NCBI RefSeq assembly: GCF_900683735.1
Contig: NZ_LR215979.1
Location: 3,472,001-3,536,000 of the forward strand
Direction of reading: 5' to 3'
Source of the DNA: Fusobacterium ulcerans ATCC 49185
GTDB taxonomy: Bacteria; Fusobacteriota; Fusobacteriia; Fusobacteriales; Fusobacteriaceae
DNA length: 64,000 nt
The notes beneath the pieces were generated by a model that worked only from the letters and a program-made list of their open reading frames with translations, did no database searches and was not told the origin of the DNA. The position numbers and the translations under genes are program-made. Below, one piece after another: positions 5,008-14,335 of this stretch (position 1 is the stretch's first letter; every line of letters begins with the position of its first letter).

Positions 5008-5018
5008 AATTTAGTTGA

Positions 5019-5102
5019 ATTACTGGGGTGCTTAAAAAGCTGAGATAGGAAATTCCTGAACCCATATAACTTGATTCGGATAATACCGGCGAAAGGAGTA
5101 AT
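5019..5102 (+). ncRNA. TPP (thi-box) riboswitch aptamer
   Basis: All core pieces of the TPP aptamer are present in order: ggggtgc (5025-5031), gctgaga (5039-5045), a ctgaaccc segment (5056-5063), the ggataataccggcga core (5078-5092) and the closing P1 helix attact (5019-5024) / agtaat (5097-5102). The aptamer senses thiamine pyrophosphate in the nascent mRNA. It precedes an intrinsic terminator and the ykoFEDC thiamine/HMP uptake genes, so TPP should switch the operon off. Confidence 0.93.
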
Positions 5103-5126
5103 GTGTATATTTTTTATTAAATAACC

Positions 5127-11061: not shown

Positions 11062-12213
11062 TTATAGAGATATCATATTTTCCATTCTGTCAAAAGCTTC
11101 TTCTAGTTTTGATATTTCAAGAGTGCAGGCTATTCTTACAAATCCCTTTACTCCAAAAGGAGTACCATTTACAACTATTATATTGCATTTTTCTAAAAGA
11201 AAATCTGTAAATTCTTCAGAAGTCATTCCAGTTTTTTCAATATTTAGAAATAAATATATCCCTCCCTGTGCTTTGAAACAGTCAAGGAAAGGTATTTTCT
11301 TAACTCTGTCATAGCAGTAATCAACTCTTTCCTTAAATATAGGGACAAGTTTCTTTTTTTGCTTATCAAAATCTTTAAGGGCATGAAGGGCACATCTTTG
11401 AGATACAGCAGGTGCACTGTAAATGATAGATTCATTTATATAGTTGATACAGTTTATAAGTTCAGGAACCTGAGATATAACATATCCAATTCTCCATCCA
11501 GTCATAGCAAAATTTTTAGAAAAACTGCATACAGATATAGTTCTTTCTTTCATTCCATCCAAAGTAATAATAGGAGTAAAAGTTTCCTCATATGAATAGA
11601 AATCATAGACATCATCTGCTACAACTAAAAGATCATATTTTTCAGCAATCTCTTTGATAATATTCATACTTTCCAGAGTATAGCATACTCCAGTAGGATT
11701 AGAAGGTGAATTTATCACTATACATTTTGTTTTTGATGTTACAGCTTTTTCTAAGTCCTCTTTTATTATCTGAAAATTATTTTCAAGTTTTGTTTCTACA
11801 ATTACAGGAACTCCATCAGATAATTTTATCTGGTCTGCATATACTGGAAAAAAAGGTGCAAGAAGTATTGCCTCTTCTCCTTTGTTGAGAATACTTTTAA
11901 ATATAAGATAAAGAGCATGGCAAGCTCCAGTAGTTATCATGACATCTTTAGGATTGAAGTTATAGTTTTTAAAATTTTCTTTATGATATTTACATATTTC
12001 TTCTCTTAGTTCAAGATAACCATATGAGTCAGTATAGTGAGTATGCCCATTTTTAGCATCAGCCATAGCCATTTCAATCAGATATTCATCAGTGTCAATA
12101 TCCAAATCTCCTATCCCTAGATTAATAAGAGGAAGAGAACAAGTTTCTGATCCCTTTTTATTTCCCATAGAGTAATTTCTTTCTTTAAACTTATCTGCAA
12201 TAAAGCTTTTCAT
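11062..12213 (-). CDS. PLP-dependent class I/II aminotransferase
   Basis: A 383-residue fold-type I aminotransferase, cytoplasmic, using pyridoxal phosphate. Visible motifs are NLGIGDLDIDTDEYLIEM near the start, HYTDSYGYLELREEI, the SPSNPTG cofactor segment, VADDVYDFYSYEE, and SFSKNFAMTGWRIGYV with the Schiff-base lysine near residue 231. C-terminal FVRIACTLE holds the carboxylate-binding Arg. It resembles aspartate/aromatic or alanine-type enzymes; substrate is not decidable from sequence. Last gene of a minus-strand operon with the dehydrogenase (13-nt gap) and amino-acid-binding lipoprotein, so a role in breakdown or reshaping of an imported amino acid is likely. Confidence 0.9.
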   Translation of the reverse strand: MKSFIADKFKERNYSMGNKKGSETCSLPLINLGIGDLDIDTDEYLIEMAMADAKNGHTHYTDSYGYLELREEICKYHKENFKNYNFNPKDVMITTGACHALYLIFKSILNKGEEAILLAPFFPVYADQIKLSDGVPVIVETKLENNFQIIKEDLEKAVTSKTKCIVINSPSNPTGVCYTLESMNIIKEIAEKYDLLVVADDVYDFYSYEETFTPIITLDGMKERTISVCSFSKNFAMTGWRIGYVISQVPELINCINYINESIIYSAPAVSQRCALHALKDFDKQKKKLVPIFKERVDYCYDRVKKIPFLDCFKAQGGIYLFLNIEKTGMTSEEFTDFLLEKCNIIVVNGTPFGVKGFVRIACTLEISKLEEAFDRMENMISL

Positions 12214-12225
12214 TTGTATTTCCCC

Positions 12226-13287
12226 CTATAATGCAAAAAGTGTTTCTTTTAAATTTTCTTTATTTATATTAAATTCCATATCTATTATATCAGGACCTGC
12301 AAGAATAGCCCAAAGGATTTTATCTTCCATCTCTTCAAACTCCTCTTTTTTTACTACTTCTGATAATTTTGTTGGAAAAACCATTTTTTTATAAAATGGA
12401 AGAAGCTCTTTATATTCCTCTTTTTTTCCTTCAAGAAGGAGTTGTACAAGTATGCCAAATGCCACCACTTCTCCATGAAGATGTTCTTTTTCCAGTGAAG
12501 GAAGCAAAGTAAGACCATAAAAAACAGAATGAGCAATAGCTCCATTGAGAAATTCATCAACTAGATTGGAAACCATTCCAGTATTTACTATAATGGAGAG
12601 AACCACTTTCTTGAATTCATCATTGATATTCTCAGCAAAGTAAGCAGAAATTCCATTTTTAAGTATTACAGAACTGCAGAGATGACTTATCTCTTTTCCC
12701 AGAGAATTTGGATAACTTATATTTCCATTATTTTTTTTAGAAACATATTCATGTTTCATTCTCACTTCATAAAATTTAGCAAGAGTATCTCCCATACCTG
12801 CCCATATATATTTATCAGGAGCGGATTTAATAGTTTCTAAATCTATAAAAGTTTTTTTGGGTGGAGCAGGGAAATTAAAGAATTCCTTAAAGCTTCCATC
12901 ATTATTATATACAACTGATAAAGCAGATGCAGCTGAACAGGTAGAAGCAATAGTAGGGATAGAAAATATTTCTATCCCCAATTTAAATGCCGCTATCTTA
13001 GCTGTATCTATGGCTTTTCCTCCTCCAATTCCAAGGAGAATATCAAATTTTTTATTCAATGTATTGTTTAATATTTTTTCAACATTTTCATATGAGCATT
13101 CTCCATGGTACATTTCAATAGAATACTCTTTACCTGAAAGCATAGAAAGAAGCTTATCTTTTATACTGTCAAAAGATTTTTCTCCTCCAATGATAAGTAT
13201 ATTGTTGTATGGAGCAATCTCTTTTTTCAGATGTTCCCATATGTTTTTGTCTATAAAGTAAGAAGTGAATGAAAAATTTTCAAACAT
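12226..13287 (-). CDS. Iron-containing alcohol dehydrogenase family (glycerol-dehydrogenase-like)
   Basis: A 353-residue group III dehydrogenase. The start at 13287 is chosen because ggagg lies 7 nt upstream; an upstream in-frame ATG at 13311 lacks one. The NAD(P)-binding glycine motif GIGGGKAIDTAK sits in the N-terminal half, followed by SIPTIASTCSAAS. The metal ligands are plausible: an Asp in the WAGMGDTLAKFYE helix and His residues in GAIAHSVFYGL and LHGEVVAFG. The enzyme would interconvert an alcohol and a ketone or aldehyde. It lies between the amino-acid-binding lipoprotein and the aminotransferase genes, so a keto acid or derived carbonyl compound is a reasonable substrate class, but that is inference. 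Confidence 0.88.
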   Translation of the reverse strand: MFENFSFTSYFIDKNIWEHLKKEIAPYNNILIIGGEKSFDSIKDKLLSMLSGKEYSIEMYHGECSYENVEKILNNTLNKKFDILLGIGGGKAIDTAKIAAFKLGIEIFSIPTIASTCSAASALSVVYNNDGSFKEFFNFPAPPKKTFIDLETIKSAPDKYIWAGMGDTLAKFYEVRMKHEYVSKKNNGNISYPNSLGKEISHLCSSVILKNGISAYFAENINDEFKKVVLSIIVNTGMVSNLVDEFLNGAIAHSVFYGLTLLPSLEKEHLHGEVVAFGILVQLLLEGKKEEYKELLPFYKKMVFPTKLSEVVKKEEFEEMEDKILWAILAGPDIIDMEFNINKENLKETLFAL

Positions 13288-13300
13288 AGTTATGCCTCCA

Positions 13301-14041
13301 TTACACACCATATTTTTCTCTTAATTTTTGAATAGTGCCATCATCAATAAGTTCTTGAAGAGCTTTATTGAATTTTTCCATAAGTTCTGTGTCATCTTTA
13401 TTAAAAGCAATAGCTTTAGGTTCTCCTTCAAGAGCTCCTACAAACATAAGCTCAGGATTGTTTTCTACAAATTTTACAGCAACACTTTCATCAAGTACAA
13501 TACCATCTATCTTACCACTTTTTAAAGCAACAAGAGCACCAGTATTAGATGAGAAAGGAGTTACAGTGGCACCTTTTATTTTTCTTGCAGCAGCTTCTTT
13601 TGTAGTCCCAAGTTCAGCACCATAGTTTTTATTTTCCAAATCCTCTAGCCCGTTGATAGGTTTGCTTTTGTTAGCTATAAAAGCTACATTAGAAGAAAGA
13701 TAAGGAATTGAGAAATTAACAGCTTTTGCTCTTTCAGGAGTGATGCTCATTCCAGCTATTACAGCATCCATTTTCTTTGTTTGAAGTGCAGGAATAAGTC
13801 CATCAAAGTTTGTATTAGACCATTTATACTGAATATCTAATTTTTGAGCTATAGCAGCTATAATATCAGCATCAAGTCCACATACTTTACCATCTTCCAG
13901 ATATTCAAAAGGTGGATATTCAGCATTAGTTCCTATTACATAGACTTTGTCAGTTTTGGCTTGTCCACCCTTAGAAGTTCCACAAGCAGCAGCCAGTACC
14001 AATAATACAGATAACATAAATAATTTAAAAAGTTTTTTCAT
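13301..14041 (-). CDS. Amino-acid ABC transporter substrate-binding lipoprotein
   Basis: A 246-residue family 3 solute-binding protein. The start at 14041 is set by ggaggg 7 nt upstream. It has a lipoprotein signal with lipobox Leu-Ala-Ala-Ala-Cys20, so it is anchored on the outer face of the inner membrane. The mature part reads YVIGTNAEYPPFEYLEDG, then GLDADIIAAIAQKL, a DGLIPALQTKKMDAVIAGMSIT segment and a C-terminal LIDDGTIQKLREKYG, all typical of polar-amino-acid binders (Arg/His/Gln/cystine class). No permease or ATPase gene accompanies it here, so it must work with components encoded elsewhere. First gene of the operon, preceded by a 258-nt leader with an attenuator. Confidence 0.92.
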   Translation of the reverse strand: MKKLFKLFMLSVLLVLAAACGTSKGGQAKTDKVYVIGTNAEYPPFEYLEDGKVCGLDADIIAAIAQKLDIQYKWSNTNFDGLIPALQTKKMDAVIAGMSITPERAKAVNFSIPYLSSNVAFIANKSKPINGLEDLENKNYGAELGTTKEAAARKIKGATVTPFSSNTGALVALKSGKIDGIVLDESVAVKFVENNPELMFVGALEGEPKAIAFNKDDTELMEKFNKALQELIDDGTIQKLREKYGV

Positions 14042-14070
14042 AAATTTTCCCTCCATGTCTTATTAAGATT

Positions 14071-14114
14071 TAAAATTAAAAAAAGTACTGATCCCTAAAA
14101 AGAATCAGTACTTT
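14071..14114 (-). terminator. Leader terminator (attenuator) before the amino-acid-binding-protein operon
   Basis: A perfect 11-bp stem atcagtacttt/aaagtactgat (plus-strand positions 14104-14114 and 14082-14092) with an 11-nt loop, followed in the minus direction by a run of seven or eight T. It lies between the operon's promoter (14307-14335) and its first gene, so it can cut off transcription before the coding region. A terminator in this position implies a control mechanism. Confidence 0.8.
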
Positions 14115-14195
14115 AATAAACGAACCCATAAAATATACTCAGGGAAAACTTTTCCCATCTTTGAAAAATATATTTATATTATGAATAATGCCATA

Positions 14196-14270
14196 TTAAA
14201 GAATCCTTTTATATAGGAATATGTTGAAAATATTTAATTGTGGCATACTCCTTAGATTCTTAAATAACAT
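14196..14270 (-). CDS. Putative leader peptide (24 codons) upstream of the attenuator
   Basis: A short frame beginning with ATG at 14270, with ggag (14277-14280) 6 nt upstream, and ending in TAA at 14196-14198. The peptide has 24 residues, with five Leu, three Phe, three Ile and a Tyr, and includes an Ile-Phe-Asn-Ile-Phe-Leu-Tyr run near the end. It lies about 30 nt after the predicted transcription start and before the terminator. Two inverted-repeat pairs compete around it: aagaatc within codons 4-6 can pair with gattctt at its end or in the terminator, and atgcca in codons 9-10 can pair with tggcat just past its stop. The layout fits ribosome-mediated attenuation, but this is inference. 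Confidence 0.5.
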   Translation of the reverse strand: MLFKNLRSMPQLNIFNIFLYKRIL

Positions 14271-14306
14271 TTTTTTCTCCTTTTGATAATTTTATTTATT
14301 GAAGTG

Positions 14307-14335
14307 ATTATATAACTTGAAAAGGATATTGTCAA
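14307..14335 (-). promoter_or_regulatory. Promoter of the amino-acid-binding / dehydrogenase / aminotransferase operon
   Basis: Minus strand TTGACA (14330-14335), a 17-nt spacer and TATAAT (14307-14312): a perfect sigma-70-type match. Transcription should start near 14300, giving a 258-nt leader. Confidence 0.85.

What the first reader, a model, noticed from the sequence alone, without database searches (positions are those of the whole stretch)
14042..14335. Promoter, 24-codon leader peptide and terminator before an amino-acid-related operon: candidate attenuator
Seen: a perfect TTGACA-17-TATAAT promoter, an ATG frame of 24 codons with its own ribosome binding site, then a perfect 11-bp terminator, all before the binding-lipoprotein gene. 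The segment aagaatc in the leader frame (plus 14255-14261) can pair with gattctt at the end of the frame (14199-14205) or with the same sequence in the terminator (14100-14106); atgcca/tggcat (14241-14246 / 14188-14193) offers a further pairing. The peptide is rich in Leu, Ile, Phe. No T-box, lysine, glycine or SAM riboswitch core was found. This may be ribosome-mediated attenuation or an undescribed leader RNA.
Basis: partly seen in the sequence, partly recalled or inferred. Interest (0 to 1): 0.6.

Follow-up and report, generated by a model that had tools for sequence, protein, structure and literature searches.

The report
Arginine attenuator before fusobacterial uptake operon
A short RNA leader in a Fusobacterium genome encodes a tiny peptide with a rare arginine codon, and it most likely lets the cell switch on an arginine-uptake operon when arginine runs low; the same kind of switch sits before many arginine genes in this bacterial family.

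Summary
In detail: minus strand 14335-14082 holds a perfect sigma-70 promoter, a ribosome binding site, a 24-codon ORF (14270-14196) and an intrinsic terminator before a Lys/Arg/Orn-type binding-lipoprotein gene. Comparison across Fusobacteriaceae shows a family of such leaders. A blind finder gave 49 distinct peptides; 47 are leaders before arginine-type uptake or metabolism genes, and all 47 carry arginine. Other copies precede argC, argG and argH. Arg is 4.8-fold enriched; 91 of 126 Arg codons are the rare AGG (genes: 9%); 91 of 96 AGG triplets lie in frame. ArgR passes its cut-off in 0 of 96 Fusobacteriales genomes. Folding fits classical ribosome-mediated attenuation: the Arg-codon region pairs with downstream leader (protector), which can instead pair with the terminator's 5' arm (antiterminator), as predicted in the window when a ribosome sits at Arg7. 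Not shown: transcription, termination, arginine response. At equilibrium the terminator beats the antiterminator by 3.5 kcal/mol in the window copy, so switching must be kinetic. Verdict: an arginine-specific member of the classical attenuator kind, in a phylum where my searches found none described.

The parts
14307..14335 (-). sigma-70 promoter TTGACA-17-TATAAT
   Evidence: 12 of 12 consensus; same element in relatives
14277..14284 (-). ribosome binding site of the leader ORF
   Evidence: sequence; aligned
14196..14270 (-). leader ORF, 24 codons and stop, MLFKNLRSMPQLNIFNIFLYKRIL
   Evidence: frame kept without indels in 4 orthologs
14250..14252 (-). Arg codon 7 (AGG), proposed sensor codon
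   Evidence: Arg at codons 3-11 in 38 of 38 leader clusters, AGG bias and frame
14205..14207 (-). Arg codon 22 (AGG), outside the zone where a stall favours the antiterminator
14187..14271 (-). protector hairpin 1:2 (arms 14271-14244 and 14223-14187)
   Evidence: predicted; 1:2 pairing enriched in the family
14192..14210 (-). antiterminator 5' strand (region 2), AAAAGGAUUCUUUAAUA plus one more pair
14098..14119 (-). antiterminator 3' strand (region 3), overlapping the terminator 5' arm
14082..14114 (-). intrinsic terminator hairpin (3:4), T run follows
   Evidence: one compensatory pair in an ortholog
13301..14041 (-). SBP_bac_3 binding lipoprotein, best NCBIfam match Lys/Arg/Orn-binding model, below its cut-off
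12226..13287 (-). iron-containing alcohol dehydrogenase / GldA-like protein
11062..12213 (-). class I/II aminotransferase (closest NCBIfam model PRK06348, below cut-off)

Best explanation
The leader is a classical ribosome-mediated transcription attenuator that senses the supply of charged arginyl-tRNA and controls an operon for a basic-amino-acid binding protein. With enough arginine, the ribosome reads the leader ORF to its stop, covers region 2, and the terminator at 14114-14082 forms: transcription stops. Without a ribosome the ORF folds on itself, which also leaves the terminator the better structure. With little arginine, the ribosome stalls at AGG codon 7, covers region 1 and frees region 2 (14210-14194). 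Region 2 pairs with the terminator's 5' arm (14119-14098) before the 3' arm is made, and RNA polymerase reads on into the operon. It is one of five such leaders found in this genome and part of a family-wide arginine regulon. Shown by computation: conserved anatomy, Arg enrichment, AGG codon bias and frame, genes controlled, alternative pairings. Inferred: translation, stalling, termination and the arginine response.
For: Blind finder without any Arg requirement: 49 distinct peptides in 217 loci; 47 are leaders before SBP, ABC permease, M20, argG or GldA-like genes, all 47 with 1-5 Arg; the other two are the rpmH gene itself and a Leu-run leader before ilvB. Arg 126 of 918 codons against 2.8% in genes; AGG 91 of 126 Arg codons against 366 of 3950 in genes; Arg at codons 3-11 in 38 of 38 clusters. 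91 of 96 AGG triplets in frame, against 366 of 6166 in genes. Arg leaders before argC, argH and SBP-argG-argH. Five copies in the own genome. Terminator-arm sequestration 0.35 without ribosome, 0.59 stalled at Arg, 0.31 at stop, 0.41 with shuffled linker (38 leaders). 1:2 and 2:3 pairings enriched, 1:3 and 2:4 not. Window antiterminator predicted in 4 of 4 orthologs. ArgR over cut-off in 0 of 96 genomes.
Against: With the whole terminator present the window leader prefers it even with the 5' part masked (P at least 0.87; -34.1 against -30.6 kcal/mol). Only 23 of 38 leaders show the stalled state clearly above both other states; L112, L126, L273 and L283 do not fit. The Leu leader meant as positive control does not show the pattern either (0.49/0.57/0.57), perhaps because the finder took the second of two terminators. 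Without a ribosome the window arm is already half paired, with the leader's 5' end (0.51). Any stall at codons 2-17 would do, so structure alone does not single out Arg. The window leader has one Arg codon in the useful zone, F. mortiferum only one in all. The window antiterminator has no change on both sides in 4 sequences. Some downstream genes (M20 amidohydrolase, dimethylargininase-like) are not plainly anabolic. The p-values treat related leaders as independent.
Confidence: 0.85

Rival explanations
1. Arrest peptide: the nascent peptide itself binds free arginine, ornithine or another ligand and stalls the ribosome, as SpeFL does with ornithine (recalled), rather than sensing uncharged tRNA.
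For: Within the subfamily of the window (SBP-GldA-aminotransferase operon) a motif LR(N/S)...LN recurs across genera. Leader-peptide control by arginine and ornithine exists in Salmonella speF (PMC6386406, passages).
Against: Across subfamilies only Arg is constant, lengths run from 11 to about 40 residues, and synonymous choice is strong (AGG), which suits codon speed, not peptide chemistry. A stall caused by high arginine would turn on uptake and biosynthesis when they are not needed.
Confidence: 0.08
2. Antibiotic-induced stalling: Arg-X-Arg motifs in the peptides stall macrolide-bound ribosomes and induce the operon.
For: Several peptides hold R-x-R (e.g. MLRRLRNRLK); an Arg-Leu-Arg motif in antibiotic leader peptides is described in PMC8632094 (passages).
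Against: Downstream genes are arginine biosynthesis and uptake, not resistance genes; the window peptide has no R-x-R.
Confidence: 0.03
3. The leader works without an intrinsic-terminator switch, for example by Rho-dependent termination or by hiding the SBP ribosome binding site.
For: The whole-leader fold lets UUUUCCCU of the linker pair with AGGGAAAA at the SBP RBS; speF in Salmonella uses Rho and RNase G.
Against: A strong terminator recurs in the leaders, with a compensatory change in one ortholog, and its 5' arm is the target of enriched pairing. The recurrence is partly built in, since the finder asks for a terminator.
Confidence: 0.06
4. A constitutive strong promoter followed by a small ORF and a chance terminator; no regulation.
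For: No expression data are at hand.
Against: Five copies in one genome, leaders in at least 8 genera, in-frame AGG bias p 3e-37.
Confidence: 0.02

Closest known systems
Ribosome-mediated transcription attenuators of trp, his, leu, ilv operons (trpL, hisL, leuL; recalled)
   Same: Leader ORF with codons of the regulated amino acid, mutually exclusive protector, antiterminator and intrinsic terminator, before genes that supply that amino acid
   Different: Senses arginine through AGG codons; found in Fusobacteriaceae; in the window copy a single sensor codon in the useful zone instead of a run; uptake as well as biosynthesis genes
Salmonella orf34-speF (SpeFL, DUF2618)
   Same: Leader peptide with Arg codons (AGG, CGG) that sense arginine (PMC6386406, passages)
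   Different: There Rho termination, RNase G decay and RBS masking control ornithine decarboxylase; here an intrinsic terminator and uptake/biosynthesis genes; no Pfam match of four leader peptides
Staphylococcus aureus rbfL
   Same: Short leader peptide with rare AGA/AGG codons that senses arginine limitation (PMC13009471, passages)
   Different: There a paused ribosome blocks the RBS of rbf and lowers expression; here a stall is predicted to raise transcription
Histidine leader peptides before hisS paralogs in bacilli
   Same: Attenuator with matching codons outside Proteobacteria and Actinobacteria (PMC2965389, passages)
   Different: Amino acid, genes and phylum; that main text holds no mention of Fusobacter

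Membership tests
Ribosome-mediated transcription attenuator | Short translated-looking ORF with RBS between promoter and first gene | tested here: met
   frame-specific AGG bias argues for translation
Ribosome-mediated transcription attenuator | Codons of the regulated amino acid enriched in the ORF | tested here: met
   Arg 4.8-fold, 38 of 38 clusters at codons 3-11; the window copy itself has 2 Arg of 24
Ribosome-mediated transcription attenuator | Downstream genes supply that amino acid | tested here: met
   argC 426 bits and argH 611 bits over cut-off; argG; for the window operon only a Lys/Arg/Orn-type SBP below cut-off
Ribosome-mediated transcription attenuator | Intrinsic terminator with alternative protector and antiterminator pairings | tested here: met
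   for the family; window antiterminator predicted, without covariation
Ribosome-mediated transcription attenuator | Antiterminator can compete with the terminator | tested here: inconclusive
   Window: 3.5 kcal/mol weaker at equilibrium; in L077, L088, L091 and L117 it wins when the 5' part is masked
Ribosome-mediated transcription attenuator | Expression responds to charged tRNA of that amino acid | not testable with these tools
   Needs reporter or RNA work
T-box | T-box covariance model match | tested here: not met
   Rfam scans: no T-box in the window
Lysine, glycine, SAM riboswitch | Aptamer model match | tested here: not met
   only a TPP riboswitch elsewhere in the window
SpeFL / DUF2618 | Pfam domain match of the peptide | tested here: not met
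   Four leader peptides of this genome, 0 Pfam matches to E 10; short peptides limit the test

The most novel reading that the evidence does not exclude
Fusobacteriaceae run a whole arginine regulon (uptake, argCJB, argG, argH) without ArgR, by parallel AGG-codon leader attenuators that read the charging of one single-copy tRNA-Arg(CCU); leaders have spread to unrelated operons and kept the AGG code while peptide and RNA sequence drifted.
Probability: 0.5. Interest if true: 0.7.

Novelty: new member of a known kind. Interest (0 to 1): 0.6.

Why it matters
It gives a concrete, testable mechanism for arginine control in an order where the usual repressor ArgR was not found over its cut-off in any of 96 genomes, and it adds arginine to the amino acids read by terminator-type attenuators. 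The extreme AGG bias, with one tRNA-Arg(CCU) gene in this genome, is a natural test of selective tRNA charging (theory in PMC1183508, passages). Arginine is a contested nutrient in mouth and gut, where some fusobacteria live (recalled).

Tried and rejected
Leu/Ile/Phe as the signal: not constant among relatives. Pairing of the Arg region with the terminator arm (1:3) and of the linker with the 3' arm (2:4): no enrichment over dinucleotide shuffles (also with mononucleotide shuffles). Known riboswitches and T-box: none in this leader. AGG pattern search of 61 genomes with 3 mismatches: mostly chance, reversed-pattern controls as frequent; only the exact copies were useful. Equilibrium folding with the terminator present: the terminator wins in most leaders, so pre-terminator folding was used instead. 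Covariation of the window antiterminator on 4 orthologs: uninformative. Outgroup: the finder on 70 loci L128-L197 (nearly all other phyla) gave 4 hits, none before an SBP gene. The sequence model R1 found strong matches in family f1; its weak matches in the 35 other genomes of the order (best E about 2.5e-5) were not inspected, so absence there is not claimed. Paper searches for a fusobacterial or arginine terminator attenuator gave no such report in the open library; most subscription papers are missing from it.

Limits of the counts: one of the 38 clusters (L054) also came by the AGG pattern, but the same leader was fetched independently as L239 by the M20 search. Rows dropped before those counts: L051 (rpmH gene) and L260 (Leu leader). 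Leaders seen only by eye or by a relaxed rule (L031, L075, L089, L096, L108, L109) are not in the counts.

Full report
What is there. On the minus strand the leader runs from a perfect TTGACA-17-TATAAT promoter (14335-14307) through an RBS (14284-14277), a 24-codon ORF (14270-14196, MLFKNLRSMPQLNIFNIFLYKRIL) and a terminator (14114-14082) to the start of an SBP_bac_3 lipoprotein at 14041. Next come a GldA-like dehydrogenase and a class I/II aminotransferase. The leader folds better than all 200 dinucleotide shuffles (z -3.7). No Rfam family reaches its gathering score in it.

Relatives. The leader DNA recurs at 89-96% identity in three genomes of the genus (G001-G003) and partly in two more. 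One of these, G010, has a contig of the same length (40,400 bases) as a Fusobacterium mortiferum contig that carries the same leader peptide. The same search found a second leader in the window's own genome, before an M20 amidohydrolase and two SBP genes: MLFNKLRIRNRKNNKNIEYLISFVC. Upstream regions of SBP relatives in other genera showed the same promoter, short ORF and terminator with different peptides that share Arg codons. The own genome has five in all: window; M20 operon (L031); SBP plus alanine-racemase-like gene (L098); SBP plus argG (L108); ABC permease, ATPase and SBP (L109). All five are found by a sequence model, which was built from them and 31 others.

Blind census. A finder that asks for promoter, RBS, short ORF, terminator and a following gene, and nothing about amino acids, was run on 217 fusobacterial loci (827 kb): 65 hits, 49 distinct peptides. 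Of these, 47 lie before SBP, ABC permease, M20, argG or GldA-like genes and all 47 contain Arg (1 to 5). The other two are the rpmH gene itself and a Leu-run peptide before acetolactate synthase. With later loci the count is 263 loci, 98 hits and 58 distinct peptides. A Trp-Trp peptide before a TrpX-like transporter gene (name recalled) also appeared. The Leu and Trp cases suggest that attenuation with matching codons is in general use in these bacteria. Leaders of the Arg kind were seen in at least 8 of the 14 genera of the family (g1, g4, g6, g8, g9, g12, g13, g14). The loci were chosen by gene homology, so this is not a random sample.

Arginine and AGG. Over 38 clusters less than 70% alike, Arg makes up 126 of 918 codons (13.7%), against 2.84% in 139,065 background codons (binomial p 2e-47). 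Shuffling nucleotides within each ORF gives 49.7 +- 6.6 Arg codons. AGG is 91 of the 126 Arg codons, against 366 of 3950 in genes (Fisher p 4e-61). All 38 have Arg within codons 3-11. Of 96 AGG triplets in these ORFs 91 are in frame (p 3e-37), whereas in genes 366 of 6166 are. An RNA motif or a Shine-Dalgarno mimic would not need the reading frame, so this argues for translation and for selection on the codon. The genome has one tRNA-Arg(CCU) gene, two tRNA-Arg(UCU), one UCG and one ACG.

Genes controlled. Among leader-led genes, argC scores 426 bits (cut-off 234) and argH 611 (cut-off 280). Full-length argG scores 590 bits in the own genome (cut-off 334). Arg leaders stand before argC in five loci from five genomes (L349, L351, L356, L358, L362; argC-like by sequence, one of the five, L349, scored), directly before argH (L363), and before an SBP-argG-argH cluster (L354). 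A dimethylargininase-like gene follows the SBP in L090 and L091 (378 bits for L091, below the cut-off of 450). In Cetobacterium-like genomes (g4) the GldA-like and aminotransferase genes of the window operon have an Arg leader of their own (L079, L103). ArgR (PF01316) passes its cut-off in 0 of 96 genomes of the order, with one hit below cut-off; the control set passes in 8 of 14, and E. coli and B. subtilis are among the 9 that ring.

Switch. In pre-terminator RNA the terminator's 5' arm is sequestered upstream with mean probability 0.35 without ribosome, 0.59 with a ribosome stalled at the last N-terminal Arg codon, 0.31 with a ribosome at the stop, and 0.41 with a shuffled linker (38 leaders; Wilcoxon p 7e-7, 9e-8 and 4e-6). 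In 23 of 38 the stalled state exceeds both others by at least 0.1; L112, L126, L273 and L283 do not fit. The Leu leader L260 gave 0.49/0.57/0.57, so the test failed on that control, perhaps because the finder took the second of two tandem terminators. Against dinucleotide shuffles, pairing of the Arg region with the downstream leader (1:2) and of the downstream leader with the terminator 5' arm (2:3) is enriched (Fisher p 2e-18 and 6e-5). Arg region with terminator arm (1:3) and downstream leader with 3' arm (2:4) are not (0.70 and 0.94). This is the classical logic.

The window copy. With a ribosome at codon 7, AAAAGGAUUCUUUAAUA (14210-14194) pairs with UAUUAAAG (14118-14111) and GAUUCUUUU (14106-14098), taking the terminator arm; with a ribosome at the stop, the arm is nearly free. 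Both pictures hold in 4 of 4 orthologs. Masking up to A-site codons 2-17 gives arm sequestration of 0.63-0.70; from codon 19 on it is 0.22 or less. Arg7 is thus well placed and Arg22 is not. At equilibrium, however, the terminator structure is 3.5 kcal/mol better than the antiterminator structure, so read-through would depend on the antiterminator forming first. The terminator has one compensatory pair among the four orthologs; the antiterminator has 100% paired cells but no change on both sides.

Known systems. Salmonella speF senses arginine through two Arg codons (AGG, CGG) in orf34, but by Rho, RNA structure and RNase G (PMC6386406, abstract and passages). S. aureus rbfL senses arginine with rare AGA/AGG codons but by RBS occlusion (PMC13009471, passages). 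A survey of premature terminators describes His leader peptides in bacilli and its main text does not mention Fusobacter (PMC2965389, passages). A study of Actinobacteria reports attenuators or leader peptides for trp, leu, ilv and cys genes (PMC1262725, passages). A screen of 26 genomes that included Fusobacteria reports cysS and other uORF motifs; of its two uses of 'arginine' I saw one, about carA in beta-proteobacteria (PMC8632094, passages). Selective tRNA charging explains codon bias in attenuator leaders (PMC1183508, passages). None of my ten paper searches found an arginine terminator attenuator or any fusobacterial one in its listing. The library lacks most subscription papers.

Verdict. 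The feature is real and very likely an arginine attenuator. The mechanism is of a known kind; the amino acid, the AGG code, the phylum and the scale of the regulon are what is new.

Noticed in passing
window 5014-5114 (+): TPP riboswitch, 83.7 bits against a gathering score of 54.3.
   Followed up: no
L360 (G079), before ilvB: Leu-run leader MILTKVLFMNLLLLLLVLLDLNRNQLNRFEK with two terminators before acetolactate synthase (734 bits): likely a Leu attenuator in Fusobacteriaceae.
   Followed up: partly
L359 (G034): Leader MSKRLTWWCKNESNKF... with tandem Trp codons and a terminator before a TrpX-like ABC binding-protein gene: likely a Trp attenuator.
   Followed up: partly
L349, L351, L354, L356, L358, L362, L363: A second terminator-like hairpin lies between the Arg attenuator's terminator and the argC, argH or SBP gene; it matches no Rfam family and its signal is unknown.
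   Followed up: no
window 14041-11062 (-) and relatives: SBP, GldA-like dehydrogenase and aminotransferase form a conserved operon across genera with no named pathway; its Arg leader suggests an unassigned use of arginine or a related amino acid.
   Followed up: partly
L348 and L352 (G030, G072): Arg leader before an operon with a 242-residue protein of unassigned function, a 749-residue SBP-permease-like protein, an ATPase and (in L348) an argH-like gene.
   Followed up: no
L355 (G000:587160-587219): SAM riboswitch before a metF-like gene (name from memory); the leader model matched only its promoter part.
   Followed up: yes
window 14148-14045 (-): In the whole-leader fold a linker segment UUUUCCCU (14148-14141) can pair with AGGGAAAA at the SBP ribosome binding site (14052-14045), a possible extra layer of control.
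   Followed up: no
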